Below are positions 5,304 to 20,571 of a stretch of 52,780 bases of DNA, one piece after another (the stretch's first letter is position 1; every line of letters starts with the position of its first letter). The notes beneath the pieces were generated by a model, which did no database searches, was not told the DNA's origin, and saw only the letters and a program-made list of their open reading frames with translations. The position numbers were made by a program, and so were the translations under genes. The stretch spans positions 1 to 52,780 of the forward strand of contig JASJDR010000036.1 in NCBI GenBank assembly GCA_030065615.1, in the 5' to 3' direction. Source of the DNA: Xenococcus sp. MO_188.B8. Lineage in GTDB: Bacteria > Cyanobacteriota > Cyanobacteriia > Cyanobacteriales > Xenococcaceae.

Positions 5304-7739
5304 GTGTTAATTGAAGTGGAGCAATCAATTAGGCTAATATCTGAAGAAACAGGAAAACTATTAGCTTGGGCATCGGGACTAGAAGGCTCAACGAATAGTT
5401 ATTTGGAAGAAGTGCAAGCTTTATCCCAGAAATTAGGAGCTCATTATCGTTCTGATGGCTTAACGGAAATTGGTTTTTGGGTACCAGGATTAATGGGAGA
5501 TGTTTTACACGAAAGAGATTTTTATCTCGAAGTGTTTACCCCTTTAGAAAAGATTGATTGGCGGAGTAAAGAACAAAGAATTAGCTTTAAACGCGATCGC
5601 ATTCACCTCGAACAACAGGGAGAATTTAGTTGGGGTGTGGTAGCGGGAATGCAGCCAGGAACGAGAGAACAACCGGGTTCTTTTTACTGGTTACGTTATG
5701 TGGATCGAGCGGAAAAGTTACGCACAATTCGGGATTTACTGCCCTATTCTCTGCCCTACGGAATTTTTGCCCCAGCAGAACTCTATGATATGGAATCGTT
5801 ACAGGCGCAAAGAGCAGATCTTGATTATTTTCAACGCACTGGCTCAATCGATAGTAAAGTACCCCCTCGTGTGGGTCCTCCGAGAAATATTTTAGAAATC
5901 CATGTGGGAACGGCTTCTGAAGAAGGAACTTTAGAAGGCTTGACTCGTATCTATCAGACTATTGCCGAGAAAATTAAGCAAAATCAGCCTTTAACCCCCG
6001 CCGAACAAAACTATATCGGCTATGACGCGATCGAATTATTACCTACGGAACCAACAATTGAATTTCGCGATGAATATAGTCCCGAAAGTGAGTTTTTTGC
6101 TTTTGTGACAGAAGATGAAGATATCGTCGAAATCGAACTGACTAAACCTAATACTCAAGATTGGGGTTACGATGTTCCTATTTTAGGTTCTAGTACCACT
6201 AATCCATCCTTACTGGGAAGTTTACGCCCCGATGAAGTAATCGATTTTATTGCCACCTTACATAATTTTCCCACCCAGCCAATTCATTTGATCTACGATC
6301 TTGTTTATGGTCATGCAGATAATCAAAGCGAGTTGTTAATTGCCCGTCAATTTCTCAAAGGACCTAATATGTATGGTCAAGATCTTAACCATCAGTTACC
6401 GATGGTGCGAGCGATTTTACTAGAAATGCAGCGACGGAAAATTAATAATGGAATTGATGGAATTCGTATTGATGGGGGTCAGGATTTCCGCTTTTTCAAT
6501 CCCCTTTCAGGAAAAGTAGAACAAGATGATGCTTATCTGTTAGCAATGAGTAATGTTCCCCAAGAAATTGTGGGCAATAGAAGATTATTATTTACGATCT
6601 TTGAAGATGGTCGTCCTTGGCCAGAGGAAGGTTGGGAAGAAAAATCTCGCTATCGGGAGCTAATCGAAGCTAAACCCGATGCTTACCAGTGGGGGCCCCT
6701 AATTTTTGCCCATAATACCCCCAGTTTACAAGGTTTTTGGCATAGAAAATGGTCACGAGTTTTGGAAGCCATGACTATTGGCGATCATTGGATTACTGGT
6801 TGTGCTAATCACGATACCGTCAGGCGGGGTAATCAAATTGCCCTAGAAGAGGCGATTAATTGGCATTTGGGTAAAACTTTACCCGACATCTTGCGTAGAG
6901 CCTATGATAATCCAGCAATTAATACTTGGGTTTATGGTTTTAGTCCTGGGTTACCAATGGACTTTATTAACGCTACAATGCACGCTCCTTGGATGTTTTT
7001 TCGGAATACCGATGAACAATATGGGGTCAAGGTGGTTTCTGAAGAAATTGGTTTTTTAGCTTGGCAAATTACGCCAGAATTATATAAAAAGCCCCATGCT
7101 TTTCCCCGTTTAAAAGCGCAAGGGTTCAAGCAGCTCAAACAATTGCAAGAATTCGGGCAAGCCTTAAATTTTGCCATGATTCAACAGGATTACAATTTAG
7201 CCGAAGTCTTAGAAATACTGCGCTCTTGTACTGATACTCATTGTATTGTCGAGCTGCCCGTGCTCACAGAATTAATGCGGGGGGGCATGGTACGATTTCT
7301 CAAAAAATTAGACTTAGACCGCTTAAAAAACTTTGCTCTGATGTTTATGGAAGATTGCTATCAAATCTGCAATGTTTTCTATTACAGAGAAGATCTTGAC
7401 CCGATTCAAACTAAGTTTAATTTGACTTTAAGACAATTTCGTCATCAGCATCCCTGGTTAGCAGCAAATATCACAGAAGGCGATCGCTTTGAGCGAATAA
7501 TCGAGGACAACAGAAGCATCTTTTATGGAGTTCGTTACTCTCCTGATAGTCAAGAAGGGGTGGCGCTGATCTCTCATTTAGAAGGATCAGCTATGACGAT
7601 TAATCTTGAAGAACTATTGGGATTGGAGTTAGAGAATTGGCAAATTGCGATCGCTTCTCCTGGTTTAGCGATCGATAATCTCCAGAGTTTTCATCTCGAT
7701 CATAGTCAGGCTTTATTATTAAAACTTGTTACTGAATAA
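5304..7739 (+). CDS. gghA: Glucosylglycerol hydrolase (GH13-like)
   Basis: An 811-residue protein matching the cyanobacterial glucosylglycerol hydrolase family (GghA, Slr1670 type), which cleaves the osmolyte glucosylglycerol to glucose and glycerol in the cytoplasm when salt stress ends. GH13-type signatures are visible: GIRIDGGQDF with the likely nucleophile Asp390, TIFEDGRPWP with the likely acid Glu434, and CANHDTVRRG with the transition-state Asp near 504. The start is a GTG directly after an in-frame TGA, with no good ribosome site; a start a few codons later is possible. Its TAA overlaps the ATG of gpsA by one base (TAATG), so translation is probably coupled. gpsA makes glycerol-3-phosphate, the acceptor in glucosylglycerol synthesis, which supports the assignment. 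Confidence 0.82.
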   Translation: MLIEVEQSIRLISEETGKLLAWASGLEGSTNSYLEEVQALSQKLGAHYRSDGLTEIGFWVPGLMGDVLHERDFYLEVFTPLEKIDWRSKEQRISFKRDRIHLEQQGEFSWGVVAGMQPGTREQPGSFYWLRYVDRAEKLRTIRDLLPYSLPYGIFAPAELYDMESLQAQRADLDYFQRTGSIDSKVPPRVGPPRNILEIHVGTASEEGTLEGLTRIYQTIAEKIKQNQPLTPAEQNYIGYDAIELLPTEPTIEFRDEYSPESEFFAFVTEDEDIVEIELTKPNTQDWGYDVPILGSSTTNPSLLGSLRPDEVIDFIATLHNFPTQPIHLIYDLVYGHADNQSELLIARQFLKGPNMYGQDLNHQLPMVRAILLEMQRRKINNGIDGIRIDGGQDFRFFNPLSGKVEQDDAYLLAMSNVPQEIVGNRRLLFTIFEDGRPWPEEGWEEKSRYRELIEAKPDAYQWGPLIFAHNTPSLQGFWHRKWSRVLEAMTIGDHWITGCANHDTVRRGNQIALEEAINWHLGKTLPDILRRAYDNPAINTWVYGFSPGLPMDFINATMHAPWMFFRNTDEQYGVKVVSEEIGFLAWQITPELYKKPHAFPRLKAQGFKQLKQLQEFGQALNFAMIQQDYNLAEVLEILRSCTDTHCIVELPVLTELMRGGMVRFLKKLDLDRLKNFALMFMEDCYQICNVFYYREDLDPIQTKFNLTLRQFRHQHPWLAANITEGDRFERIIEDNRSIFYGVRYSPDSQEGVALISHLEGSAMTINLEELLGLELENWQIAIASPGLAIDNLQSFHLDHSQALLLKLVTE

Positions 7740-8677
7740 TGAATCTTCATTCTCTAAGAACAAGCTTAACTATTATTGGTGCTGGTGCTTGGGGCAGTGC
7801 CTTAGCGGGTGTTGCCCAAAAAGCAGGTCAGCAAGTACAACTCTGGTCTCGTAGAAGTCCCCAATCATTAGAGTCTGTAACTCAAAATGCGGCAGTTATT
7901 CTCTGTGCTACCTCCATGAAAGGAGTTAATAGCACTATTGCACGGCTCCAAACCATCTCGATTCCCCAGACTACCATTTTAGTCAGTGCCACCAAAGGTC
8001 TCGACCCGACAACGATGCAGACTCCTTCGCGATTATGGCAAACTGCTTTTCCCCATAATCCCATTGCGGTACTTTCTGGCCCTAATTTATCTAAAGAAAT
8101 CGAACAGGGTTTACCAGCGACCACTGTGATCGCCAGCACCAATCTCGCTGCGGCAGAACAAGTCCAAAAGATGTTTTCCTCGGATTCGTTTCGAGTATAT
8201 ATCAACGATGATCCTCTAGGAACCGAGTTAGGAGGAACCTTAAAAAATGTTATTGCGATCGCCGTGGGTGTTTCCGATGGTCTAAAATTGGGTACTAATG
8301 CCAAATCTGCTTTGATTACTCGCTCTCTTAAGGAAATTATCGCTGTGGGAACTCATTTAGGGGGCAAAACAGAAACTTTTTGGGGTCTTGCAGGTTTAGG
8401 AGATTTGTTAGCAACTTGTAGCAGTAGTCTCAGTCGTAATTATCGCGTCGGCTATGGATTAGCTCAAGGGAAAATTTTAGCTAAAATTTTGTCAGAGTTG
8501 CAAAGTACAGCCGAAGGAGTCAACACGGCTCATGTATTATTAAAACTTGCTAAATCCCAAAACATTCAGGTTCCGATTTGTCAGCAAGTCTGTCTGTTAC
8601 TGAATGGTCTTACAACCCCAGAAGCCGCATTGGAGGCATTAATGAGTCGTGATTTGAAATCAGAAATAGGCAATTGA
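7739..8677 (+). CDS. gpsA: Glycerol-3-phosphate dehydrogenase [NAD(P)+]
   Basis: Reduces dihydroxyacetone phosphate to sn-glycerol-3-phosphate, feeding glycerolipids and, in salt-adapted cyanobacteria, glucosylglycerol. The 312-residue product is of normal size. Visible are the dinucleotide-binding GAGAWGSALAG at about 15-25, VLSGPNLSKEIEQGLP, the catalytic-lysine region ELGGTLKNVIAIAVG, and FWGLAGLGDLLATCSS followed by SRNYRVGYGLAQG. The first few residues are extra relative to the Rossmann start. Coupled to the upstream hydrolase gene by a one-base stop/start overlap, so the two form a compact solute-metabolism unit. Confidence 0.95.
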   Translation: MNLHSLRTSLTIIGAGAWGSALAGVAQKAGQQVQLWSRRSPQSLESVTQNAAVILCATSMKGVNSTIARLQTISIPQTTILVSATKGLDPTTMQTPSRLWQTAFPHNPIAVLSGPNLSKEIEQGLPATTVIASTNLAAAEQVQKMFSSDSFRVYINDDPLGTELGGTLKNVIAIAVGVSDGLKLGTNAKSALITRSLKEIIAVGTHLGGKTETFWGLAGLGDLLATCSSSLSRNYRVGYGLAQGKILAKILSELQSTAEGVNTAHVLLKLAKSQNIQVPICQQVCLLLNGLTTPEAALEALMSRDLKSEIGN

Positions 8678-8740
8678 GAAAGAAGTGATTTGATCCTGTT
8701 ACGAGACCATTAACATTAGTATCTAATAAATACCTAACGG

Positions 8741-8965
8741 TCATAGTTCAACATTTCTACCAGTGGTTTTATCTCGCAAATTTGTAAAAATTTCCTCTTC
8801 AAAATCCGCGTTTTTGAAATCTTGAGAGTTTCTAAAATCTTCTAAGCTAGTCGAAAAATTATTTACTGTTTGAATATCAATTAAAATTTCTACTCCATCA
8901 AGAATGTTAATTTCTTCTAATAATTCGATAGTTTTACCCTTCTTAATCCCTTTAACTGATGACAT
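8741..8965 (-). CDS. Orphan antitoxin-like small protein
   Basis: A 74-residue protein. Its N-terminal half (VKGIKKGKTIELLEEINILD, then GVEILIDIQ) resembles the short beta-rich DNA-binding region of cyanobacterial antitoxins that accompany PIN-domain toxins, and the acidic tail ends LRDKTTGRNVEL, a typical toxin-binding tail. A GGAG-type ribosome site lies just upstream on the minus strand (GAAAAAGGAG). No toxin gene follows: only 63 bases separate its stop from the end of gpsA. So it is an orphan antitoxin or the survivor of a lost pair. The family call rests on pattern only. Confidence 0.6.
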   Translation of the reverse strand: MSSVKGIKKGKTIELLEEINILDGVEILIDIQTVNNFSTSLEDFRNSQDFKNADFEEEIFTNLRDKTTGRNVEL

Positions 8966-9031
8966 AATTACTCCTTTTTCTGCAATTTTTATCTATTTTC
9001 TCTCAGAATTGGGGTTTAGGGGTGAAGTACT

Positions 9032-9104
9032 CTTCACTTTGCCTGGTGGAAGCTCGATCACACCAATCTAATACTCGATTCCACGCCCGAAGGGCGATCG
9101 CGGT
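9032..9104. repeat. Dispersed 73-base repeat, copy 1
   Basis: Matches 12275-12347 at 65 of 73 positions by eye. Both copies keep GTGGAA near the left and its exact complement TTCCAC about 27 bases later, so a stem-loop is conserved, and both end in GAAGGGCGATCGCGGT containing HIP1. In this copy CGCCC-GAA-GGGCG adds a second small hairpin. It lies in the 305-base gap between the antitoxin-like gene and the alpha/beta hydrolase; nothing else is recognised in that gap. Confidence 0.75.
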
Positions 9105-9270
9105 TTTTGACTGGGCGCTGGTAAACTTTGTTGTATTTTGCTCGACTAAGTGTGATTTTTTAAAATTTGGCTACAGAAAAACCCTTGAAAATATATTGTT
9201 AAGGGCTTTGCTGCAAAAGTTCTAATTTCTGCCACAGTCACCATCAATTATTGATTCTGATAATAAAATT

Positions 9271-10209
9271 TCAAACTTTAGACTTATTTTTTTCAACGGC
9301 GCGATCGCTATTCAAAAACTCTCGCATATATTGATTGACTAGATTTGGCTGTTCCTGTTGAACCCAGTGACTACAGTTGGGAATATAGCGAAGCTGAAAA
9401 TCTTTCACATAGTCTTGGGTATCATAAGTCAACTCTTTACCGAGAAATTTGTCATTTTTCCCCCAAATCATCAGTGTGGGAACTTGCAGTACGTCCCATG
9501 TTGTCTGATTCAAAGGCCGTGGAAAAATATTGCGGTAGTAGTTAATCATGGCAGTAAGGGCACCTGGTTTGGCGGCAGCGTTTTTGTATGCGGCCAAGTC
9601 TTCTGGGGTAAAGGCGGTTTTGTTGATCGCTGAATCAATAAAGGCAGAAGCGATCGCCCGATAGTTATCGAACTGTAATCTTAACTCTGGCAGTAAGGGG
9701 ATTTGAAAAAAGAGGATATACCAACTTCGTAGCATTTGTTGGGGATTACTGCGCAATGCTGCGGCAAATTTGGCGAGGTGAGGAGAATTCATCACAATTA
9801 GCTTCTCTAGCATTTCTGGATGGGCGTAGGCAAAACTCCAGGCGATAGCTCCTCCCCAATCATGTCCGACTAAGATACAGCGATCGTAACCTAGTCCTTT
9901 GATAACACCTTCTACGTCCTTAATCAATTCTGCTATCCCATAAGCTGCTCGTTCTTGAGGTTTTTCGCTTTCGTTATAACCCCGTAAGTCAAGGGCAACC
10001 ACCTTGTAATCTTTGGCAAACTCTGGGATTTGATATCGCCAAGAGTACCAAAATTCGGGATAACCATGCAGCATCAGCATTAGAGGTCCTTCTCCCTGAG
10101 TGACGTAATGCAGCCGAACTCCATTGCTGAGAATGTAATCCTGTTTTAGAGAACTTTCTAATTCAGACATAGAAGGCTTTTTCATGGGAATATTCAGAAG
10201 AAGAAGCAA
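9271..10209 (-). CDS. Alpha/beta hydrolase, epoxide hydrolase/dehalogenase-like
   Basis: A 312-residue cytoplasmic hydrolase. It has the oxyanion motif HGYPEFWYSWR at 49-58, the nucleophile elbow VGHDWGG with Asp117, an acid in the LMIWGKNDKFLG strand near 255 and the catalytic His281 in CSHWVQQEQP. An Asp nucleophile and the HGxP motif are characteristic of soluble epoxide hydrolases and haloalkane dehalogenases; the physiological substrate is unknown. The first ATG gives MLLLLNIPM; an ATG eight codons later (MKKPSM) may be the real start. It lies 35 bases downstream of uppS on the same strand and may share its transcript. Confidence 0.85.
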   Translation of the reverse strand: MLLLLNIPMKKPSMSELESSLKQDYILSNGVRLHYVTQGEGPLMLMLHGYPEFWYSWRYQIPEFAKDYKVVALDLRGYNESEKPQERAAYGIAELIKDVEGVIKGLGYDRCILVGHDWGGAIAWSFAYAHPEMLEKLIVMNSPHLAKFAAALRSNPQQMLRSWYILFFQIPLLPELRLQFDNYRAIASAFIDSAINKTAFTPEDLAAYKNAAAKPGALTAMINYYRNIFPRPLNQTTWDVLQVPTLMIWGKNDKFLGKELTYDTQDYVKDFQLRYIPNCSHWVQQEQPNLVNQYMREFLNSDRAVEKNKSKV

Positions 10210-10244
10210 TAAATATCTTAATTGGCTTGAGCTAAGTTGAGAGC

Positions 10245-11018
10245 TTAAAATGATAGAGTAGGCATGGCCGTGATTTTCCCAAATCTGCGATCGCGTTTTT
10301 GATAGCTGATGATAGCTTTCTCAAATTGTTGTAGATCAAAATCTGGCCAAAAAGTATCTGTTACATACATCTCTGTATAGGCTAATTGCCATAGTAAAAA
10401 ATTACTCAGGCGCATTTCTCCGCTGGTGCGAATTAAAAGATCGGGATCGGGATTTGCAGAAGTATAGAGATATTGAGAAATGGTATTTTCGTCGATGGTA
10501 TCTGGTGATAATTCTCCTAGAGCTACTTTTTCCGCAATATCGCGACAGGCTTTAACAATTTCTTTCCGACTGCCATAATTAATTGCTACATTAAAATTTA
10601 TTGTTTGATTATGTCGGGTTTTTGCCATAGAGTAACGGATTTCTTGTTGCAAAGATGAAGGAAGGGGAGATAAATCTCCAATAAATCTAATACGAACTCC
10701 CTCTTCTCTCATTTCCTGTAATTCTTTTCGTAACAATCTCTCAAACAAATTCATCAGAAAACCGACTTCTGTTAGGGGACGACCCCAATTTTCTGTGGAA
10801 AAAGCGTAAGCTGTTAAAGTGTTAATTCCCCAATTTTTACAAGTCCGCAATATTTCCTTAAGAGTATTTGCACCCTGACGATGTCCTTCTAGTCGAGGTA
10901 AGCCCCTTTGTTGGGCCCAACGTCCATTCCCATCCATAATAATGGCTACGTGTTGTGGTAACTTTTTGAAATCGAGATCGATGGAGGTTGATGTTGTTGA
11001 TACTAATTGTGCAGTCAT
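10245..11018 (-). CDS. uppS: Isoprenyl transferase (undecaprenyl diphosphate synthase)
   Basis: A cis-prenyltransferase that condenses farnesyl diphosphate with isopentenyl diphosphate to make the C55 lipid carrier for peptidoglycan and polysaccharide synthesis. The 257-residue product is the usual size. The catalytic [17 protein letters not shown] includes Asp29; the conserved [30 protein letters not shown] and the C-terminal [19 protein letters not shown] are all present. Lies 39 bases downstream of the ferritin-like gene on the same strand. No anomalies. Confidence 0.95.
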
Positions 11019-11056
11019 AGAGTTTTTTTGTTAATAGTTAATAAATAACACCACCT

Positions 11057-11962
11057 TTATTTCAGGCCATTGAAAAACATTGGAACCAACTTTTCCCTGA
11101 ACATTTGTGGATCTAGTTTCCAAGCTTTGTAGGCTACTCGAATTCGGGTTATTTGCAGTTCAGGTGCTAATAGAGTTGGCAGTAGGTGCCGCATCAAATA
11201 CAGAGGACGTTCCCAGAACGGCATTGTGTTAGTTACTTCTAGGAGATTTTTGAGCCGACGCAGTTCTGCACCAACCATGAGATCGTTCCCCATCACCCAA
11301 GCCGCCTGTTCCATCGCTGCACACTTTTGCTTGGTCTGTTCGACCTTTTTCCTACATTCTGGGCTTTTCTTGGCGATTTTGGCTAGCCAGCGATTGCCCC
11401 AACTAACGTGACCTGCTTCTTCTAGGAAAATTTTTTCGAGGGTTTCCCGAATTTTGCTATTTTCTTCTGTCTGAGGAGCTTCTTTGAGAGCATGGATATG
11501 GGCAGCAAATGTTTGACAACCTCGCTTTTCAGTGACGTTAATCGATGCTAAGACTGTAATCAGATAGTCTTCGAGGTTTCTTTTTGGATCGTAAGATTCT
11601 AGTTCTAGCAACCTTTCAAAATAGTCAATATATGAAACTCCCAATGGCGTACCAATTGTAACTGCCAGTGACTTACCAGGATCTAGTGGACCGAGATCTA
11701 TCAGTAAATCTGTCAGCCACATCGCATGGCGTGCTTCGTCTGAGACATGACGTGACAACTCTTGAATTAATTCAATTAATTCTTGAGAATCAGCTTTGAG
11801 CTTTTCAATGATATCGGTGAGTTCTTTGCAGCTTCGCTGTTCATTGTAGCGATAGCGATTGAGCGTCATCAGGTGAATTTTGCGATCAGACAGTACAAAT
11901 TGCTTGGCGAGGTCGCGAGCACTTATGGAATTGTTGAGTTTTCGAGGATAGGCAACTGCCAT
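11057..11962 (-). CDS. Ferritin-like diiron protein of unknown substrate
   Basis: A 301-residue, mainly helical protein with the complete E, ExxH, E, ExxH pattern of a diiron-carboxylate four-helix bundle: Glu41 (YNEQR), Glu76-His79 (SDEARH), Glu145 (VTEKR) and Glu182-His185 (EEAGH). It is therefore likely a diiron oxidase or oxygenase rather than an iron store. A basic C-terminal region (ITRIRVAYKAWKLDPQMFRE) follows the bundle. I do not recognise a characterised family. It lies just upstream of uppS on the same strand, so isoprenoid or membrane-lipid modification is one guess. Start ATG is clear; upstream lies a 414-base gap holding a 10-base inverted repeat. Confidence 0.75.
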   Translation of the reverse strand: MAVAYPRKLNNSISARDLAKQFVLSDRKIHLMTLNRYRYNEQRSCKELTDIIEKLKADSQELIELIQELSRHVSDEARHAMWLTDLLIDLGPLDPGKSLAVTIGTPLGVSYIDYFERLLELESYDPKRNLEDYLITVLASINVTEKRGCQTFAAHIHALKEAPQTEENSKIRETLEKIFLEEAGHVSWGNRWLAKIAKKSPECRKKVEQTKQKCAAMEQAAWVMGNDLMVGAELRRLKNLLEVTNTMPFWERPLYLMRHLLPTLLAPELQITRIRVAYKAWKLDPQMFREKLVPMFFNGLK

Positions 11963-12103
11963 TTATTTATATAAACTTGTATGAATTTTTTTTGTTAAGT
12001 CGAGTTATTCAATAAAGATAAGCACAAAAAAGTAACAAACTAGGTACAAATACTGGTCATAATCTTGATGTTTTGTACATCGTAAAAATCACAGTTGTAA
12101 AAC

Positions 12104-12129
12104 TAACTACATATCGTACTATGTAGTTA
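12104..12129. promoter_or_regulatory. Inverted repeat upstream of the ferritin-like gene
   Basis: TAACTACATA and TATGTAGTTA form a perfect 10-base inverted repeat with a TCGTAC spacer, about 140 bases upstream of the minus-strand gene at 11962. It is AT-rich with no T tract, so an operator is more likely than a terminator. Otherwise the 11963-12376 gap holds only repeat copy 2. Confidence 0.45.
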
Positions 12130-12274
12130 ATGATATTAATATAAATGTAAAAGCTACTGGTAATGGTCTTGAAGTGAGTTTTGCAATAATAGAAAAAGCA
12201 AGCAGTATCAGAATTGTTTGATAGATTCTTCAGAAATACTAAAAAATATTCTTAAGACTGACTGTTCATTTGCC

Positions 12275-12347
12275 CTTCACTTTACGTGGTGGAAGCCTGA
12301 TCGCACCAGTCTAAAACTCGATTCCACGACCGAAGGGCGATCGCGGT
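12275..12347. repeat. Dispersed 73-base repeat, copy 2
   Basis: Same orientation as copy 1 at 9032-9104, differing at 8 of 73 positions. The outer GTGGAA/TTCCAC stem is unchanged, while the small CGCCC/GGGCG hairpin of copy 1 is broken by one substitution. It ends about 30 bases from the end of the aminotransferase gene, in the gap upstream of the ferritin-like gene. Confidence 0.75.
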
Positions 12348-12376
12348 AGAGTTTCCGAAATCAGTAAATAGGTAAT

Positions 12377-13558
12377 CTACCCTTGGCTAATTTCTTGTAA
12401 TCCCCTAACTAATCGTTGGATAGCTTCCACTGCCGTTTCTGGTTCTAAAGCACCATAGGCAACTCGTAAATAACAACCATTTGTCATGCCAAAAGTACTC
12501 CCAGGAAGGACTGCTACTTTATAAGTTTCAATTAAATTTTTCACTAACTCAAAATCAGGAATTTCTATCTTAATTTTGAGAAAAAGATAAAAGGCACCTG
12601 CTGTCGGCGCTATTGTGCAGATATTTTTAATTGAACTAAGTTCTTGAAGAATTTTCTCTCTTGTAAACGCAATATTTGGTAAATATTTTTGACAATAATT
12701 TACCCCAGTTTTTATGGCACCTAAAGCAGCATATTGAGAAACTACAGGAGGACAAATAAGATTAGTATCTTGAGCTTTTTTCACTGGCATCAATAGATGT
12801 TGAGGAATGACCATATAGCCAATACGCCAGCTAGCAAAACCATAAGCTTTCGATAAGCTAAAAAGAGAAATTGTGTGGTTTTTACTATCAGGAAATGAAG
12901 CGGGAGAAAGATGTTTTATGCCGTTATAAGTAAAATATTCATAGGCTTCATCCCTCAGATGATAAATACCTTTTTCTCGGCAAATTTGATTTACTTCTGC
13001 TAAAGCTGCTGGTGAATAAACAACTCCCGTAGGATTATTAGGAGAAATAGTAACTACAGCTTTAGTTTTGGGTGTAATTGCTTTCGCGATCGCGTTTGGT
13101 TGTAGTTGATAATTGGCATCGGTTGCTACTAACACTGGCTGACAACTTGCCATTGTAATTGCCATTTCATGATTGAAATAATAGGGAATATTGAGAATAA
13201 TTTCATCTCCTGGGGAAGTAATGGCAAAAATAGTATTGAGAAACGCCATATTGCTTCCCGCCGTTACCACAATCGAATTATCTTGGTTGATGACAATTTT
13301 ATTTTCGACTTGTAATTTAGTTTTAATCGCCTCAATTAAGGGAGTAATTCCTTCTACGGCTTGATATTTGTGATTGGCTGGGGATGCTAGAAATTCTGTA
13401 ATAGAAGATATTGCTTCTGGCGGAGGAGGATAAGAAACTACTCCTTGTCCTAGAGAAATAGTACCTGGATTTTGACGGATCAGTTCTCCAATTACAGGGA
13501 TTAACGGTGTTTGTACCGCTGACATGCGCGAATTTAGTCTTAGTTTTTGCTGGAACAT
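12377..13558 (-). CDS. PLP-dependent aminotransferase, class I/II
   Basis: A 393-residue fold-type I aminotransferase, cytoplasmic. SLGQGVVSYPPP at the N-terminus, the TISPNNPTGVVYS loop, LRDEAYEYFTY and the PLP-lysine motif SLSKAYGFASWRIGYM (Lys near 235) are visible, along with the C-terminal CYLRVAYGA arginine that binds the substrate carboxylate. It resembles aspartate/aromatic aminotransferases, but the amino donor cannot be told from sequence. Transcribed alone on the minus strand; a start ATG ten residues in (MSAVQTPLIP) is an alternative. Confidence 0.9.
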   Translation of the reverse strand: MFQQKLRLNSRMSAVQTPLIPVIGELIRQNPGTISLGQGVVSYPPPPEAISSITEFLASPANHKYQAVEGITPLIEAIKTKLQVENKIVINQDNSIVVTAGSNMAFLNTIFAITSPGDEIILNIPYYFNHEMAITMASCQPVLVATDANYQLQPNAIAKAITPKTKAVVTISPNNPTGVVYSPAALAEVNQICREKGIYHLRDEAYEYFTYNGIKHLSPASFPDSKNHTISLFSLSKAYGFASWRIGYMVIPQHLLMPVKKAQDTNLICPPVVSQYAALGAIKTGVNYCQKYLPNIAFTREKILQELSSIKNICTIAPTAGAFYLFLKIKIEIPDFELVKNLIETYKVAVLPGSTFGMTNGCYLRVAYGALEPETAVEAIQRLVRGLQEISQG

Positions 13559-13698
13559 CTAACATCTTCCGCATTGGTTTTCAGTAAATATAAACTTTCT
13601 ACACAGCGATCTCTTAAAAATACTAGTGGACGTAGGCATAAATATTACACATATTCAAAAAGGTTAGACTTTTGTCATAAAAGGCTTTTGACTTCCGC

Positions 13699-13718
13699 AT
13701 AGATAGATAGATAGATAG
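13699..13718 (+). repeat. ATAG tetranucleotide tandem repeat
   Basis: Five exact ATAG units, in the 309-base gap between the divergent aminotransferase and ABC importer genes, about 150 bases before the first importer gene. Such tracts can change length by slippage and may alter promoter spacing. Nothing else distinct is seen in this gap. Confidence 0.7.
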
Positions 13719-13867
13719 AAGTAGTAGAAGTTACCTTACTATATTAAATTTTGTGTATTCTATTGTATATTTTTGCATAAATTTGGCTACTAGATTGCTA
13801 GTTTGTTTCAATTAATAGTTATTTTTTATAGTATGTATAGCTTTTATGAGATTTTTAGGTGCGGTAA

Positions 13868-14890
13868 GTGAAGATACGAAAAACCTTAAAAAGAAGCATC
13901 TTGTTGATGCTGGCAACATTTGTTTCAATGCTTTATATTATTTCCGGGGGTCAATCTCAGTCCAACGAACAAGTTTATCGTATTGGTTTAGGGCCTTGGA
14001 TCGGTTTCGGCCCAATCTATCTTGCCCAGGAAAAAGAATTTTTTCAAGAAGTAGGGATTAAACCAGAATTAACCGTTATCACGGGCCTAGCAGAACGCAA
14101 TAGTGCGCTAAAGTCAGGTAAGATTGATGCTCTTGCCGCACCCGTTGACTACTTTGTCCTCTCTGCTGGCAATCGTCTAGAAACTACAACTGTCATGGCA
14201 ATCGATGAATCTGTCGGGGGTGATGGCATCGTTGCCAAGAAGTCGATTAAGAGTTTTCAGGATCTTAAAGGTAAAAAGGTTGCCTTTCAACGGGGTTTGC
14301 CTAGTGAATTCTTTCTGCGAGCTTTATTGCAGCAAAATGGCATGAGTCCGGACGACTTGGACACCGTCGATATGGAAACAGCTCAGGGGGGTGCTGCGTT
14401 TATTGCGGGTCAAGTAGATGCAGCCGTTCTCTGGGAACCTTGGTTGACGAAAGCAAAGGAAGAAGGAAATGGAGATATTCTGGCATCTACCAAGCAATAT
14501 CCCAATCTAATTGTGGATTGTTTGGCATTTAATAGTCGGGTTGTTGAGCAATCTCCCGAAGACGTACAGAAAATCGTCGATGTGGTGCTCAAAGCCATTG
14601 CCTATTGGCAAAAAAATCCAGAAGAAGCCAACCAGATTATGGCTCCTTTCTTTGAAGTGGATGCAGCTAAGTATGCAGCAATTCTGAGTGGTGCTAGGTT
14701 TACCGATCTTGCTCGCAATCAGGAATATTTTGGCACAAAGGAAAATCCTGGACCAATCTTTGAGGTAGCTAAACAGGCTTCAGAAATCTGGCTAAAGGCT
14801 GCCATCATTCAAGTTCCGGTAAATCCTAAATCTATTATTTCAACTGATTTTATTAAGCTACCTAGAGGGTCGGATAGAGATGAAACGTAG
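13868..14890 (+). CDS. NitT/TauT-type ABC substrate-binding protein
   Basis: A 340-residue periplasmic binding protein of the NrtA/SsuA/TauA superfamily. An N-terminal signal or lipid-less anchor (SILLMLATFVSMLYIIS) precedes the binding fold: YRIGLGPWIGFGPIYLA, then DLKGKKVAFQRG and AAVLWEPWLTKA, all typical of this superfamily. The ligand (nitrate, sulfonate, thiamine precursor or other) cannot be read from the sequence. Start is a GTG; an ATG at 13846 opens a different frame. First gene of a five-gene plus-strand operon; its end overlaps the next gene by 11 bases. Confidence 0.88.
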   Translation: MKIRKTLKRSILLMLATFVSMLYIISGGQSQSNEQVYRIGLGPWIGFGPIYLAQEKEFFQEVGIKPELTVITGLAERNSALKSGKIDALAAPVDYFVLSAGNRLETTTVMAIDESVGGDGIVAKKSIKSFQDLKGKKVAFQRGLPSEFFLRALLQQNGMSPDDLDTVDMETAQGGAAFIAGQVDAAVLWEPWLTKAKEEGNGDILASTKQYPNLIVDCLAFNSRVVEQSPEDVQKIVDVVLKAIAYWQKNPEEANQIMAPFFEVDAAKYAAILSGARFTDLARNQEYFGTKENPGPIFEVAKQASEIWLKAAIIQVPVNPKSIISTDFIKLPRGSDRDET

Positions 14891-15080
14891 AGTTACCAAG
14901 AAAAGAACTTTTTTCCTCATTATGGCAATCACTATCAGTACAATTTGTGTAGTTTTAGGGTTTCAGTCTCAGTCTCTTGTAACAAACCAAGAACAAACAC
15001 CTACACCTCCATCTAACTCAACGTCGAGTGTGAACGATGACGTATTTTGGAAACAATTAATAACTGAATGGCTATCTTAA
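14880..15080 (+). CDS. Small membrane-anchored protein within the ABC operon
   Basis: A 66-residue protein with a basic start (MKRRVTKKR), one hydrophobic segment at about 10-28 and a hydrophilic, Pro/Ser/Thr-rich periplasmic tail ending DDVFWKQLITEWLS. It overlaps the binding-protein gene by 11 bases and the permease gene by 13, so it is locked between two real genes in a third frame. That packing is the main argument for it being real. No family is recognised. It could be an accessory subunit or a linker between binding protein and permease. Confidence 0.65.
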   Translation: MKRRVTKKRTFFLIMAITISTICVVLGFQSQSLVTNQEQTPTPPSNSTSSVNDDVFWKQLITEWLS

Positions 15081-15856
15081 AACGTTATATTTTGAGCGGT
15101 AAATTTTCAGTCTTCCAATCACGATTATTGGAATTATCTCCTTTTCTTGCTCTGTTACTCGTTTGGTATTTGTTAACTAGAACTGAGATAATTAGCCCCA
15201 TCTTTCTTCCGCCACCAGACAAGGTTTTTTCCAACCTCCTGCAACTTTTTTTATCCGTCAATTTCCTTGTAAATAATTTGTTTCCCAGCGTCTTTAGAGT
15301 CACGTCAGCTTTCCTAATGTCCGTTTTCATTGCCCTTCCCCTTGGAATTGTCAGTAGTCAAATTGCTTTTATTTCACGTTTACTTGAACCCATCTTTGGA
15401 TTTACTCGTTATCTTCCCGTTGCTGCTTTGGTTCCTCTTTGCATTCTCTGGTTCGGAATTGGTGACGAGCAGAAGATAGCGGTGATTACATTAGGAGTAG
15501 TTTTTCAGCTTGTCTTGCTATTTGCCTTCGATACAGCCTCAGTTCCTCATGAGTTCATAGAGAGTGGTCGTACCTTTGGGTTAACTCGTTGGCAAATTGT
15601 CCTTCGAGTTGTACTCCCTTGGTCTATGCCAGCTATCTGGGATGATATGAGAATTTCGGCTGGTTGGGCTTGGTCTTACCTAGTGCTGGCAGAACTTGTG
15701 GCTGGAAACAAAGGTTTAGGCTATTTCATCATTCAATCACAGCGATATTTGCAAACAGAAAAGGTTTTCGCGGGAATTTTATTCGTCGGTATTCTAGGTG
15801 CTTTAACTGATATGATGTTTCGAATTGTAGCTTCTAAGCTATTTCAATGGAAATGA
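15068..15856 (+). CDS. NitT/TauT-type ABC permease
   Basis: A 262-residue inner-membrane permease with about six hydrophobic helices and the cytoplasmic EAA loop (SGRTFGLTRWQIVLRVVLP) that docks on the ATPase. The N-terminal LPPPDKVFSNL and YLPVAALVPLCILWFGIG segments are typical of SsuC/TauC/NrtB. Probably acts as a homodimer because the operon has only one permease gene. Overlaps the preceding small gene by 13 bases and the ATPase gene by 10. Confidence 0.92.
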   Translation: MAILKRYILSGKFSVFQSRLLELSPFLALLLVWYLLTRTEIISPIFLPPPDKVFSNLLQLFLSVNFLVNNLFPSVFRVTSAFLMSVFIALPLGIVSSQIAFISRLLEPIFGFTRYLPVAALVPLCILWFGIGDEQKIAVITLGVVFQLVLLFAFDTASVPHEFIESGRTFGLTRWQIVLRVVLPWSMPAIWDDMRISAGWAWSYLVLAELVAGNKGLGYFIIQSQRYLQTEKVFAGILFVGILGALTDMMFRIVASKLFQWK

Positions 15857-16635
15857 AGACAAACAATGATACTGGGTTGTTAAAGTTCCAAAATGTCTCA
15901 AAAACTTTTGTAGATAACAAGTTTCGCAAGATTCAGGCTTTAGCCAACATTACATTTGCTTTAAATCAAAGTGAATTTATTGTGATTATTGGTCCTTCTG
16001 GTTGTGGCAAATCTACGATCTTGAGGTTGGCAGCGGGGTTGGACAAGACCTCTTTTGGGAAAGTTCTATATCGGGGTAAACAGATTAAAGAACCAGACCG
16101 TCGGCGAGGATTAGTGTTCCAATCCTACAGCGTATTTCCTTGGCTAACCGTTCGGGAGAATATTGAGTTTGGGCTAGATAAGACTGATTCTCGACTCAAT
16201 CAAGAAAAAGTTTCAAACTGGTTGTTTTTCACGGGCTTAGCTAATTTTGCTGATGCTTATCCCAAAGCTCTCTCTGGGGGTATGCGCCAAAGAGTTGCTC
16301 TCGCTCGCACAATGATTGTTGAGCCAGAATTGTTGCTGCTGGACGAACCATTTGGAGCCTTGGACGAACGCACTAGAGAAAGTATGCAAGCCTTGTTGCT
16401 TAAAGCCGTTGCTAATTCAGGATGTTCTGTCTTGTTAGTTACCCATGATATTCGTGAAGCCCTGATCCTGGCTGACCGAGTGTTCTTGATGGGGCCACAC
16501 CCAGGAAAAATTTTGGATACCTTTGTCCCTCCCTCAGAGAAGCCGCGAACTCGTGACAATCTTAGCAATCCTGAATTCAAGTCTTTATATAAGGAAATTC
16601 TTAACCGTTTCCCAGTTCAATTGTTAGAAGACTAG
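15847..16635 (+). CDS. NitT/TauT-type ABC ATP-binding protein
   Basis: A 262-residue cytoplasmic ATPase of the SsuB/TauB/NrtD type. Walker A GPSGCGKST, Q-loop VFQSYSVFPWL, signature LSGGMRQRVALAR, Walker B LLLLDEPFGALD and the switch His in LVTHDIREALILADR are intact, so it should be active. The C-terminal segment (GPHPGKILDTFVPP) is usual for the group. Overlaps the permease gene by 10 bases. Confidence 0.95.
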   Translation: MEMKTNNDTGLLKFQNVSKTFVDNKFRKIQALANITFALNQSEFIVIIGPSGCGKSTILRLAAGLDKTSFGKVLYRGKQIKEPDRRRGLVFQSYSVFPWLTVRENIEFGLDKTDSRLNQEKVSNWLFFTGLANFADAYPKALSGGMRQRVALARTMIVEPELLLLDEPFGALDERTRESMQALLLKAVANSGCSVLLVTHDIREALILADRVFLMGPHPGKILDTFVPPSEKPRTRDNLSNPEFKSLYKEILNRFPVQLLED

Positions 16636-16670: not shown

Positions 16671-18224
16671 ATGAATATGAATAGTCTCAGAAAAGCTATA
16701 TTGTTGTTTGTGATATCTTTGCTTATAGTTGTATCTTTTGTCGTAATTAAGTCATTAATTCCTCCCAAGTCGCAGAATTCGGGGGAATGGCTTATGTTAG
16801 GAAACCCATTCAGCGGTTTTAGCACCTTCCGCAATGAAGAATTCAAGAGAGATCTCGAAAAAGAGGGAATTAGTCTAAAGTTTGAGTGGGAACCTGACCA
16901 GAAGGAACGCGCAAGGCGTTTAAGTGACGGGGAGGCTCAATTAATTGTCACCACTTTGGATCAGGTGATCCAGCATAGACCAGAGGGGAAAATTGTAGGA
17001 CTGATTGACCGCACCAAAGGAGCTGATGCAGTAGTAATAAATACAGTAGATTTTCCTAGTTTGAGAGATCTGAAGTATCCTAGCTTTGAGGCTTTTGAGG
17101 CTTTGCGTAAGCTAGCTAACAACGAACACTCAAAGGGACGGAAGCTGAAGATGGTCTATGCCAAAAACAACCCTCCTGAGTTTCTAGCTCGCTACTTAGA
17201 CTTCAAGTTTGATACAGAGTTTGAGTTGAACTATTTTGACACGAAGGATTGCTGTAACAACATAATAGAAACTTTCGAGACACTGCAAACAGATCGAGAT
17301 GTGGTACTCGCTGTTATCTTTGAACCATTCATTACTAAAGCTGAAAAGGCTGGTTACAAAGTACTCCTCTCCACTGAATATGTGCCGAAAGCAATAGTAG
17401 ATGTACTCGTTGCCTCTGACCAGTTGCTCCAACAGCAATCGAGAAAAGTCTCCAAATTTCTGGAAGTTTACTACGATCACATCAACAAACTCCTGTTAGA
17501 TAAGTCGTTGATGCGAAAACAAATTTTAGATGACGATAAAACATTGTCGTTGGAGGAAACGGAGAATCTTCTGGAAGGGATTTACTTTTTTACAGCAAAA
17601 GAAGCCAAAGCTTGGTTTACTAACGAGACACTAGAAGATTTGATCGATGAATTTGGTTTATTGCTGGAATTGTCAAACAAAATAGATCGGGCACCTCAAA
17701 GATCCAAAGACTTTTTTACTGTCGAGTCAATTGAACAGGCTGTAGCAACTAATGAAGAACTATGCGGCAAATTTGAGAAATTGTTGCAATTCAAAAGAAT
17801 TTGCCAATTCGAACCTGTTCCAGAGCTTGATTTTGATGACATATCCCCTGATCCAACTCCTCCTGTGCCAACACCCCCATCCGATTCGCTTAGCATTTCA
17901 GAAACAGTATACTTTCTTACTAGTGGGTCTTCGACATTAACGCCTGACAGTAGCAAAACTATTGACAATTTAGCTAAAAAGATTCAAGAAGAATACCCAG
18001 ATGTGTTTGTGAAAGTGATTGGTCATGCCTCTAGAACTGGTGGTAAAAAATACAACGATTTCCTTAGCTATCAGCGGGCAAAGGCAGTTGAGGAATATCT
18101 GCGCAGTCTTGGTCTCAAAAATACAATTGATATTGAGGCTCAAGGCTTCTCCAATCCACTACCTGACTTTCCTCCAAAAGATCGTCACCAACAACGGGCT
18201 GAAATTAGTCTTGTTCGACAGTAG
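16671..18224 (+). CDS. Binding-protein-like domain fused to an OmpA-like domain
   Basis: About 517 residues from the ATG at 16671; a TTG three codons earlier is also possible. Residues about 4-25 form a membrane anchor. Residues about 35-330 resemble the same binding-protein superfamily as the operon's first gene (LIVTTLDQVIQHRPEGKIVG, then KGADAVVINT and VVLAVIFEPFITKAEKAGYK). A Pro-rich linker (DPTPPVPTPP) leads to a C-terminal OmpA/MotB-type domain with GHASRTGGKKYNDFLSYQRA. In the usual GHTDxTG motif the peptidoglycan-binding Asp is here Ser, while the Arg after the LS motif is kept. Last gene of the importer operon, 35 bases after the ATPase gene. It may be an anchored sensor or a second binding protein tethered near the cell wall. 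Confidence 0.75.
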   Translation: MNMNSLRKAILLFVISLLIVVSFVVIKSLIPPKSQNSGEWLMLGNPFSGFSTFRNEEFKRDLEKEGISLKFEWEPDQKERARRLSDGEAQLIVTTLDQVIQHRPEGKIVGLIDRTKGADAVVINTVDFPSLRDLKYPSFEAFEALRKLANNEHSKGRKLKMVYAKNNPPEFLARYLDFKFDTEFELNYFDTKDCCNNIIETFETLQTDRDVVLAVIFEPFITKAEKAGYKVLLSTEYVPKAIVDVLVASDQLLQQQSRKVSKFLEVYYDHINKLLLDKSLMRKQILDDDKTLSLEETENLLEGIYFFTAKEAKAWFTNETLEDLIDEFGLLLELSNKIDRAPQRSKDFFTVESIEQAVATNEELCGKFEKLLQFKRICQFEPVPELDFDDISPDPTPPVPTPPSDSLSISETVYFLTSGSSTLTPDSSKTIDNLAKKIQEEYPDVFVKVIGHASRTGGKKYNDFLSYQRAKAVEEYLRSLGLKNTIDIEAQGFSNPLPDFPPKDRHQQRAEISLVRQ

Positions 18225-18854: not shown

Positions 18855-19445
18855 ATGAGAAGACCGACTTGGTTGAATGATATAGCAATATGGGGTCTAA
18901 TTCTGGCATTTCTGGCAATTGTAGTTGATGTAGCTAATCCCGAAATAAGAAATTTTTTGGGACTAAGAGAAGGTAGCAATGAAAATCCAAAAACTGCTCA
19001 AAAGACAAGTAGTAATACATCCCGTTACACTGATCTTGAGAATCTCCTAAAAAAAGAAAAATGGCAGGAAGCTGATAGGGAAACCTATTCAATAATGCGT
19101 CAATTGGCACAGAGAAAAAACCTAGATTCCCAAGCTCTCAAAAAAATTTCCTGTTCAAACCTCAAAGAAATTGACCATCTTTGGGTCGAATATAGCAACA
19201 AACACTTTGGTTTTAGTGTTCAGAAGCGTATCTGGCAAAAATTCGATGGAAAAAAAGATGATCCAGTCAAGGAATTAGGTAATACCGTAGGGTGGCGAGA
19301 AAAGAATCGATGGAAGGGGCTAGATGAAATAGATTTTAATTTGCACGACGCTCCTGCGGGACATCTACCTGTTCTCAAAACCGAGGTGTGGACTGCGGAG
19401 AAAGGAGGGTTTCCGCTTCTATTCGAGCGTTGCAACAAGCTGTGA
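18855..19445 (+). CDS. Membrane-anchored GUN4-domain protein
   Basis: A 196-residue protein with one N-terminal membrane helix (IAIWGLILAFLAIVVDV) and a GUN4 domain from about residue 58. Hallmarks are YTDLENLLKKEKWQEADRET, SNLKEIDHLWVEYSNKHFGF, SVQKRIWQ and the VGWREKNRWK and APAGHLPVL segments. Canonical Gun4 binds protoporphyrin and activates magnesium chelatase; this is one of the many GUN4 paralogues, so a tetrapyrrole-binding or sensing role is likely but chelatase activation is not shown. Transcribed alone with a long AT-rich upstream region. Confidence 0.85.
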   Translation: MRRPTWLNDIAIWGLILAFLAIVVDVANPEIRNFLGLREGSNENPKTAQKTSSNTSRYTDLENLLKKEKWQEADRETYSIMRQLAQRKNLDSQALKKISCSNLKEIDHLWVEYSNKHFGFSVQKRIWQKFDGKKDDPVKELGNTVGWREKNRWKGLDEIDFNLHDAPAGHLPVLKTEVWTAEKGGFPLLFERCNKL

Positions 19446-19575
19446 ACTATAGCATGATGCCTATCAGTTAAGTTGAACAAGGCGAATTTCAGTGCGTTGT
19501 TGTTGAGAGTATTTTGAAGAAATTATTTTTTATGATATTTTCTTTCCATATTAACGCTATTTGAAGGAGATAAAG

Positions 19576-20571
19576 ATGCCGGCTAGATTTGAAGACAAGG
19601 TTTTAGGAAGCTCCATTACCACAGCATCTAGACTACCTTGGACTAACGCACCAGTTCGCTCGACGGGTGAACTTTACCCATACCTGAGCAAACGATTAGC
19701 TGAGCTGCATGATTACTTACCTCTCTCAGTGACTTTATTCTCAGATCCAGAAATTGAGGAATCAGCTATGGTTAGTTTTCTTGAAGAACTTCCAGGTCAG
19801 TTTGAACGAGAGTTCCGCCTTCGGAATGCCCGTCGGGAGCGGTTCGTTAATATGAATTTATTGAGTGAGCAGGAAATTCACGAAATCTTAACTGGACACA
19901 GGCAGGTACAACCCTGGGCGCTATACTTCTCCAGAGAAGGTGGGTTAGGTGTTTTGTCTCAGAACCTGGAAGTTTATCGGGAAGATGTGTCCAGCGGTGT
20001 TGTCCCCTGCACCTCCATGCCGAATCATGGTGTTGCTTGGAGAAAAACATCGGCAGAGGACTGTCAGATTTGGCTGGCGACGGCTCGAAAAGAAGGATTG
20101 GATTGGGATTGGGATTCCGATATTGGTCATGAGTCGGCACATTCAAGTTTTGCTCCAGTTCCCCTTTTTGCTCAAGCCTTACATGTTAATCCTGAAATAA
20201 CTTCCTTAGATACCGTTAATAATATCCAATATCTTAGTACTGATCACTTGGCTCGTATGAGTTACACCTATTCAGAAATTGCTGTGATTGCCATGCGTGG
20301 AGAACAGCGAAATACAAAAACTGGCTTACCTGTTGTGGAGCAACCAGAAGAACTTTATGCCTTCCTAGAATTGTCGCACCAACTTATGCCAGACTTAGGG
20401 TTTGATCGAGCTTTAACTTCTTGTAAGCGTGCTAATGGTCAAATCGATGTTGATGATAGCGTTGAAATTTATGAAATTGGCGCATCAGTAATGCGTGTTC
20501 TGCCTCACATTTCCAAATTAACTAATAGCTTTGCTATACCAACAATTGACTTTTATAAATCAATAAGTTAA
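19576..20571 (+). CDS. Unrecognised protein with an HExxH motif
   Basis: A 331-residue soluble protein with no signal peptide or membrane helix. I do not recognise the family. ATG 19576 is preferred over the upstream TTG because AAGGAGA lies 5 bases before it. The sequence is compositionally ordinary, with DWDWDSDIGHESAHSSFAPV in the middle. HESAH (about 184-188) fits the zinc-metallopeptidase HExxH pattern, but a third ligand cannot be assigned, so the match may be chance. A Cys in VVPCTSMPNHG and another in ALTSCKRANG may be functional. Stands alone; a MITE-like repeat follows 20 bases after its stop. Confidence 0.7.
   Translation: MPARFEDKVLGSSITTASRLPWTNAPVRSTGELYPYLSKRLAELHDYLPLSVTLFSDPEIEESAMVSFLEELPGQFEREFRLRNARRERFVNMNLLSEQEIHEILTGHRQVQPWALYFSREGGLGVLSQNLEVYREDVSSGVVPCTSMPNHGVAWRKTSAEDCQIWLATARKEGLDWDWDSDIGHESAHSSFAPVPLFAQALHVNPEITSLDTVNNIQYLSTDHLARMSYTYSEIAVIAMRGEQRNTKTGLPVVEQPEELYAFLELSHQLMPDLGFDRALTSCKRANGQIDVDDSVEIYEIGASVMRVLPHISKLTNSFAIPTIDFYKSIS

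What the first reader, a model, noticed from the sequence alone, without database searches (positions are those of the whole stretch)
16671..18224. Substrate-binding-like domain fused to an OmpA-like domain within an ABC importer operon
The operon has a normal binding protein, a permease, an ATPase, a small anchored protein, and this anchored binding-protein/OmpA fusion. The last would tie a ligand-sensing module to the cell wall. I do not know a characterised equivalent.
Basis: partly seen in the sequence, partly recalled or inferred. Interest (0 to 1): 0.6.

Follow-up and report, generated by a model that had tools for sequence, protein, structure and literature searches.

The report
Wall-linked receptor beside nutrient importer
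A cyanobacterial nutrient-import operon also encodes a membrane-anchored second receptor with a tail resembling cell-wall-binding domains; the design is real and recurs, it has been noted in print as a prediction, and I found no experiment on what it does.

Summary
ORF 16671-18224 (517 aa) has a predicted membrane helix, an SsuA/TauA-type binding domain (residues ~36-366) and an OmpA-like domain (~406-516). The binding half matches the operon's own binding protein (E 1e-10; profile-profile E 1.4e-21) and TauA by fold (Z 27.8). Genes for binding protein, small membrane protein, permease and ATPase overlap in series; the fusion starts 35 nt later. Of 76 related loci kept by a capped scan, 12 have a binding protein and permease downstream. 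Vibrio plasmids hold a homologue in an ABC operon (E 1.5e-30) that already bears an NCBI name, and a 2024 paper describes PBP-OmpA plus ABC operons with the same proposed role. So the kind is known but, as far as I could search, untested. Two additions: the OmpA Asp needed for diaminopimelate binding is Ser in 70 of 70 sequences, so wall binding is unproven; and some relatives lie beside FtsZ-like (FtsZl1) or PspA-like genes. Most likely: an accessory receptor of the importer, possibly stationed at the wall.

The parts
16671..18224 (+). Fusion protein, 517 aa: membrane anchor + SsuA/TauA-type binding domain + OmpA-like domain
16677..16757 (+). Predicted N-terminal membrane helix, residues 3-29; no Cys lipobox in the sequence
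   Evidence: helix in the model; hydrophobic stretch read from the sequence
16776..17768 (+). Substrate-binding domain, residues ~36-366
   Evidence: TauA 6ssy Z 27.8 over 38-354; CmpC/NrtC regulatory domains Z 22.9-24.7; hhalign to operon binding proteins E 1.4e-21
17802..17882 (+). Low-confidence linker, residues 378-404 (Pro-rich)
   Evidence: pLDDT below 50
17886..18218 (+). OmpA-like domain, residues 406-516; Ser454 (18030-18032) where the diaminopimelate-binding Asp normally sits, Arg469 (18075-18077) kept
   Evidence: PF00691 E 1.9e-14; Z 15.7-17.4 to listed OmpA/Pal domains; Ser aligned to Asp in the five printed alignments to solved OmpA domains
13868..14890 (+). Stand-alone SsuA/NMT1-type substrate-binding protein
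   Evidence: PF09084 E 2e-27; SsuA_fam TIGR01728 E 3.4e-42, below its cut-off
14880..15080 (+). Small 66-aa protein with one hydrophobic stretch, overlapping both neighbours; among the loci held, only a signal-peptide-like match (31 residues of the Calothrix binding protein, E 0.002)
15068..15856 (+). ABC permease
   Evidence: PF00528 E 4.8e-23
15847..16635 (+). ABC ATPase of the nitrate/sulfonate/taurine type
   Evidence: PF00005 E 4.1e-31; TIGR01184 E 4.6e-62, below its cut-off
19561..20571 (+). Protein of unknown family with an HESAH motif; a 73-74% relative follows the ATPase in the Calothrix locus, so it probably belongs to this transporter cluster
   Evidence: no Pfam or NCBIfam hit, no PDB hit

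Best explanation
The fusion is an accessory receptor of a sulfonate/taurine/nitrate-type ABC importer. Its N-terminal helix holds it in the inner membrane; its binding domain samples the same or a related small ligand in the periplasm and presents it to (or signals it to) the permease; its C-terminal OmpA-like domain, on a flexible linker, holds receptor and importer at the wall. Shown here: domains, predicted fold, gene cluster and recurrent linkage to importers. Inferred: topology, co-transcription, ligand binding, contact with the permease, wall binding.
For: Full-length SBP fold. Invariant residues of the 51-row alignment fall at G44/F47/S48, T94/L96, G117-A120 and E218/P219, stretches that align with conserved stretches of the operon binding proteins; that these line the cleft is family knowledge, not tested. 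Linkage: SBP and permease downstream on the same strand in 12 of 76 loci, with an ATPase also found in 10 of the 12; 10 of the 49 loci with at least 3.5 kb downstream. Linkage recurs with importers whose SBPs share only 24-30% identity between three groups. Gene order differs between the window (fusion last) and Calothrix L064 (fusion first) while the linkage stays. On the family tree the importer label needs 8 changes, at least 5 forced by well-supported branches (gains and losses are not told apart). A homologue sits with SBP, permease and ATPase in Vibrio.
Against: Ser replaces the diaminopimelate-binding Asp in 70 of 70. 64 of 76 loci show no SBP-permease pair, though many contigs are short. 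Three relatives (L061-L063) keep the OmpA domain but lack much of the binding domain. Ser at that position also occurs in other OmpA domains of related genomes (13 Ser, 15 Asp in the 28 of 34 loci where the motif was read), so Ser may be tolerated. Groups 2 and 3 of the importers are closer in permease (41-47%) and ATPase (56-58%) than in SBP, so they are not wholly separate systems. The tree warns that the long branch of window and L064 meets the long branch of L118, a join that may be false. I have no localisation, binding or transport data.
Confidence: 0.45

Rival explanations
1. Sensor or regulator rather than receptor: the extra binding-protein domain reads the ligand and controls the importer or a cytoplasmic partner, as the extra binding-protein-like domain fused to the ATPase does in the cyanobacterial nitrate and bicarbonate importers (NrtC, CmpC; role recalled and from PDB titles), but from the periplasm.
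For: CmpC and NrtC regulatory domains are among the best fold matches (Z 24.7 and 23.4). Some relatives carry cytoplasmic heads: a zinc-ribbon-like Cys pattern in 5 of 69 and in own-genome C83 (weak Pfam hit E 0.0021, below cut-off); long heads in the own-genome C272 copies.
Against: The window copy has only a few residues before the membrane helix, so no head of its own to signal with. TauA is the better fold match.
Confidence: 0.3
2. Envelope scaffold linked to predicted membrane-shaping proteins: the fusion ties cytoplasmic PspA/ESCRT-III-like or FtsZ-like polymers to the wall, and import is secondary.
For: FtsZl1 (Tubulin_2, E 1.8e-94) directly upstream of the own-genome C83 fusion; a phmmer relative of it directly upstream of the L095 fusion, where the run is FtsZl1-fusion-SBP-permease-ATPase. 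PspA-like genes upstream on the same strand in 7 loci: 124-268 nt away in 6, overlapping frames in L102 (only the L098 member was scanned, PF04012 E 2e-8, just over its cut-off). OmpA proteins beside FtsZl1 (PMC2875224, passages) and PBP-OmpA beside PspA/Snf7 plus ABC genes (PMC11237479 section 18) are already in print.
Against: Neither is near the window operon: this genome's one full-length Tubulin_2 match is on C83 and its one PspA match on C161. These contexts are a minority of the 76 loci.
Confidence: 0.15
3. The OmpA-like domain does not bind peptidoglycan; with Ser for Asp it has become a protein-protein contact domain, so the wall link is only apparent.
For: Ser454 and Arg469 are both invariant in 51 sequences; D271A and R286A tests showed both residues critical for diaminopimelate association in A. 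baumannii OmpA (PMC6572160 introduction citing earlier work, passages). The two Vibrio homologues read also have GHTS, while the second OmpA-type protein of their operons has GHSD.
Against: The Arg, the fold and the rest of the motif are kept; Ser could still contact the wall peptide or another wall group.
Confidence: 0.3
4. Chance gene fusion or annotation artefact.
For: Weak single-sequence Pfam signal for the first half.
Against: 69 full-length relatives from 68 loci carry both parts, a homologue exists in another phylum, and the model is confident.
Confidence: 0.01

Closest known systems
NCBI 'phosphate ABC transporter substrate-binding/OmpA family protein' (Vibrio plasmids pSEA2, pIFO15640)
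   Same: hhalign E 1.5e-30 over 432 columns, both halves; OmpA domain with GHTS; pSEA2 operon holds an ABC ATPase, an NMT1-type SBP and a permease; pIFO15640 has the same annotated set
   Different: 22.9% identity; Pfam alone finds no SBP domain in it; the operon also has a second OmpA-type protein, a VWA protein and a TelA-type protein, absent from the window operon
PBPB-OmpA protein in PspA/Snf7-AAA+-ABC operons (PMC11237479, mSystems 2024)
   Same: Solute-binding plus OmpA domains encoded with an ABC ATPase and permease; same functional proposal in print
   Different: No PspA gene in the window operon; I could not retrieve their example OGG56892.1 to test homology
SsuA/TauA/NrtA/CmpA (NMT1) binding proteins
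   Same: Fold (Z 23.8-27.8) and sequence profile
   Different: Predicted to be fixed to the membrane, and carrying an OmpA domain; ligand unknown
NrtC/CmpC regulatory domain
   Same: A second binding-protein-like domain in a cyanobacterial importer of the same type
   Different: There it is cytoplasmic and fused to the ATPase (recalled); here it is predicted periplasmic and separate
MotB, PomB, TssL (membrane helix + OmpA domain)
   Same: C-terminal OmpA domain (sequence matches); inner-membrane anchor (recalled)
   Different: No binding-protein domain in those (recalled)

Membership tests
SBP-OmpA fusion family (NCBI 'substrate-binding/OmpA family protein') | Type-II substrate-binding-protein domain of the NMT1/SsuA/TauA kind | tested here: met
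SBP-OmpA fusion family (NCBI 'substrate-binding/OmpA family protein') | C-terminal OmpA-like domain in the same chain | tested here: met
   PF00691 E 1.9e-14
SBP-OmpA fusion family (NCBI 'substrate-binding/OmpA family protein') | Homology along the chain to a protein so named | tested here: met
   hhalign of A2 to Vibrio L155:8869-10389, E 1.5e-30, 432 columns
PspA/Snf7-AAA+-linked transporter operons (PMC11237479) | ABC ATPase and permease in the operon | tested here: met
PspA/Snf7-AAA+-linked transporter operons (PMC11237479) | PspA homologue in the operon | tested here: not met
   The one PspA match of this genome is on C161; so the window operon is not filed here, though some relatives lie beside PspA-like genes. 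Snf7 was not searched for.
Peptidoglycan-binding OmpA_C-like domain | Fold | tested here: met
   Z 15.7-17.4 to listed OmpA/Pal domains
Peptidoglycan-binding OmpA_C-like domain | Diaminopimelate-binding Asp (D271 of A. baumannii OmpA) | tested here: not met
   Ser454 in the window; Ser in 70 of 70; aligned to Asp of solved domains
Peptidoglycan-binding OmpA_C-like domain | Diaminopimelate-binding Arg (R286) | tested here: met
   Arg469 invariant in 51 sequences; 15 residues after Ser454, the same spacing as D271-R286
Peptidoglycan-binding OmpA_C-like domain | Binding to peptidoglycan | not testable with these tools
   needs purified protein or sacculi
SsuA/TauA-type ABC importer | SBP, permease and ATPase of that type | tested here: met
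   every listed NCBIfam match scored below its curated cut-off (for the ATPase the best 25 of 211 were shown), so the substrate is not assigned

The most novel reading that the evidence does not exclude
The family is a ligand-gated transmembrane tether: a binding-protein domain whose closure on ligand changes a link between cytoplasmic, predicted membrane-shaping polymers (FtsZl1, PspA) or the importer on one side and the wall on the other, through an OmpA-like domain that has changed its target (invariant Ser for Asp). Nutrient state would then directly control wall-membrane attachment.
Probability: 0.1. Interest if true: 0.75.

Novelty: new member of a known kind. Interest (0 to 1): 0.4.

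Why it matters
Importers of this type normally use a free or lipid-anchored receptor (general knowledge). A second receptor joined to a wall-type domain, found beside importers with three divergent kinds of binding protein and, in some relatives, beside two predicted membrane-shaping systems, suggests that import and envelope architecture are coupled. The invariant Ser makes a precise test possible: either the Asp is not needed for wall binding, or this set of presumed peptidoglycan-binding domains binds something else.

Tried and rejected
Rejected: a chance ORF or artefact (69 full-length relatives). Thought unlikely: an ordinary secreted or lipoprotein receptor (no Cys lipobox; cytoplasmic heads before the helix in some relatives). 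The GUN4-type gene 18855-19445 was considered as an operon member and dropped: no relative of it among the L064 ORFs.

Led nowhere: the first genome-contig scan with the single sequence gave no relative; the profile scan did, and kept the best 80 of 96 relatives (76 distinct loci), so it is a capped list. Prevalence is unsettled: the order draw gave 20 of 195 genomes with a match better than E 1e-40, own genome included, plus 3 with a shortened binding domain (my count); the phylum draws gave 6 of 386 (profile) and 4 of 386 (single sequence) at E 1e-20, own genome included, with at most 3 and 5 candidates scored per genome. These are different draws and I do not reconcile them. Promoter and terminator scans gave no more than shuffles. 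The structure model of the 19561-20571 protein failed (mean pLDDT 30.9), so no fold search was made with it; plasmids held no match to it. My first two motif counts failed through a faulty pattern; one search is the correct one. The 593-627-aa protein that follows the fusion in some loci has no Pfam match (L098 member scanned). PMC8839378 was opened (passages) and proved irrelevant. The viral library of structures and the viral contigs were not searched.

Rows given in part: alignment A2 holds 50 of the 69 full-length fusions plus the window; 19 were left out by hand, some as near-copies or with long heads. The 69 come from 68 of the 76 loci (L116 has two); eight loci gave none of more than 480 aa (L120, L124, L129, L130, L131, L139 cut by contig end or frame, L137 split in two frames, L112 of 463 aa). 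Author names of papers are recalled; the calls showed titles and text.

Full report
WHAT IS THERE. The window is a whole contig (C213) of an 8.26-Mb genome whose named relatives by this protein are cyanobacteria. On the + strand lie a stand-alone SsuA/NMT1-type binding protein (13868-14890), a 66-aa protein with one hydrophobic stretch (14880-15080), a permease (15068-15856) and an ATPase (15847-16635), each overlapping the next, and 35 nt further the fusion (16671-18224). Promoter- and terminator-like matches are no more than chance, so co-transcription is inferred.

BOTH HALVES ARE REAL. The OmpA half is plain (PF00691 E 1.9e-14). The binding half scores poorly against Pfam alone (NMT1 E 0.0097) but is clear otherwise: BLASTP to the operon's own binding protein E 1e-10; profile against profile E 1.4e-21 over 294 columns; AlphaFold2 model with mean pLDDT 86.7, whose residues 38-354 match TauA (Z 27.8, 285 residues, rmsd 2.9), with CmpC, CmpA, SsuA, NrtA and NrtC domains close behind. 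Residues 3-29 are a predicted helix, 378-404 a low-confidence linker. Membrane insertion and orientation are inferred.

RELATIVES. A profile scan of named genomes kept the best 80 of 96 relatives, 76 distinct loci, cyanobacterial by title except one labelled Gracilibacteria (L119). The closest is Calothrix sp. MO_192.B10 (L064, 57-59% identity), sister to the window with 100/100 support; the branch of the pair is long and meets another long one, L118, so its place in the family is unsure. In L064 the order is fusion - SBP - a gap of 1.2 kb - permease - ATPase - relative of window 19561-20571. So the gene order changed and the linkage did not. The 19561-20571 protein has no Pfam, NCBIfam or PDB match, is 73% identical to its Calothrix relative and otherwise gave one weak, stop-ridden match in 195 genomes and none in plasmids; it probably belongs to this cluster. 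Both copies carry HESAH, a possible metal site by its letters only.

CONTEXTS. Among the 76 loci, 12 have SBP and permease downstream of the fusion on the same strand, 10 of these with an ATPase too; they are 10 of the 49 loci with at least 3.5 kb downstream, plus 2 with less. The SBPs fall into three groups that share only 24-30% identity: window plus Calothrix; L066, L095, L133; own-genome C272 plus the SBP beside the L055 fusion. Between the last two groups permeases (41-47%) and ATPases (56-58%) are closer. In C272 an SBP-permease-isochorismatase-ATPase run lies between two further fusions of 853 and 880 aa. Second context: FtsZl1 (Tubulin_2 E 1.8e-94) directly before the C83 fusion of this genome, and a relative of it (phmmer) before L095, where one run reads FtsZl1, fusion, SBP, permease, ATPase. 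Third: a PspA-like gene (PF04012 E 2e-8 for the L098 member, the only one scanned) upstream on the same strand in 7 loci, 124-268 nt away in 6 and in an overlapping frame in L102. The majority of the 76 loci show none of these, and many contigs are short.

WALL BINDING IS OPEN. In A. baumannii OmpA, D271 and R286 are reported as critical for diaminopimelate association (PMC6572160, passages). The family keeps the Arg, but the Asp is Ser in 70 of 70 full-length sequences counted, window included; Ser454 and Arg469 are invariant in the 51-row alignment, 15 residues apart as D271 and R286 are. The two Vibrio homologues read also have GHTS. In 28 of 34 OmpA loci held from 20 related genomes the motif could be read: 15 have Asp and 13 Ser; at least 6 of the 13 are members of this family (L002-L005, L176, L182), and others are not known to be, so Ser is probably not unique to it. 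Either Ser suffices or the target changed.

LIGAND BINDING IS LIKELY, NOT SHOWN. Invariant positions fall in stretches that correspond to conserved stretches of the operon binding proteins. Against this, three relatives (L061-L063) lack much of the binding domain and keep the OmpA part.

KNOWN OR NEW. tblastn against plasmids found six Vibrio records with a 'phosphate ABC transporter substrate-binding/OmpA family protein' (best 22.9% identity over 90% of the query, E 2e-11), homologous in both halves by hhalign although Pfam finds only its OmpA domain. Its operon holds an ABC ATPase, a second OmpA-type protein, a VWA protein, a TelA-type protein, an SBP and a permease. PMC11237479 (mSystems 2024; section 18 read; [quoted passage not shown] PMC2875224 (Biology Direct 2010; passages; Makarova and Koonin, recalled) reports OmpA-family proteins beside FtsZl1. 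I found no experimental study in an open-access library.

VERDICT. A real, recurrent, receptor-like accessory protein of SsuA/TauA-type importers; a new member of a known, apparently uncharacterised kind. The parts worth a specialist's time are the invariant Ser in the supposed wall-binding site and the shared contexts with FtsZl1 and PspA-like genes.

Noticed in passing
window 19561-20571; L064 12308-13255: Protein of no known family with a conserved HESAH motif, linked to this importer in the window and in Calothrix; in a draw of 195 genomes of the order only one further, weak and stop-ridden match.
   Followed up: partly
L053 (own genome C272) 6131-15876: SBP-permease-isochorismatase-ATPase run flanked by two 853/880-aa fusions with long N-terminal heads.
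   Followed up: partly
L094, L098, L108, L110, L123: PspA-like gene, fusion, then a 593-627-aa protein (no Pfam match for the L098 member); HDIWG is invariant in the 7 members aligned, of 8. In L094, L108 and L110 genes that look like carboxysome (ccm-type) genes lie upstream, judged from their sequences only.
   Followed up: partly
L061, L062, L063: Family members in which much of the binding domain is missing while the OmpA part is kept; a urease-type gene lies nearby in all three (judged by its first residues only).
   Followed up: no
L045 3386-4465: Rubisco accumulation factor Raf1 gene (PF18087, PF18578) directly upstream of a fusion; a similar pair in L058.
   Followed up: no
window 42628-43020 (-): Weak, sub-threshold match to Tubulin_2 inside a 519-codon frame.
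   Followed up: no
window 18855-19445: GUN4-type protein (PF05419 E 5.9e-36) with an N-terminal hydrophobic stretch, between the fusion and the HESAH protein.
   Followed up: no
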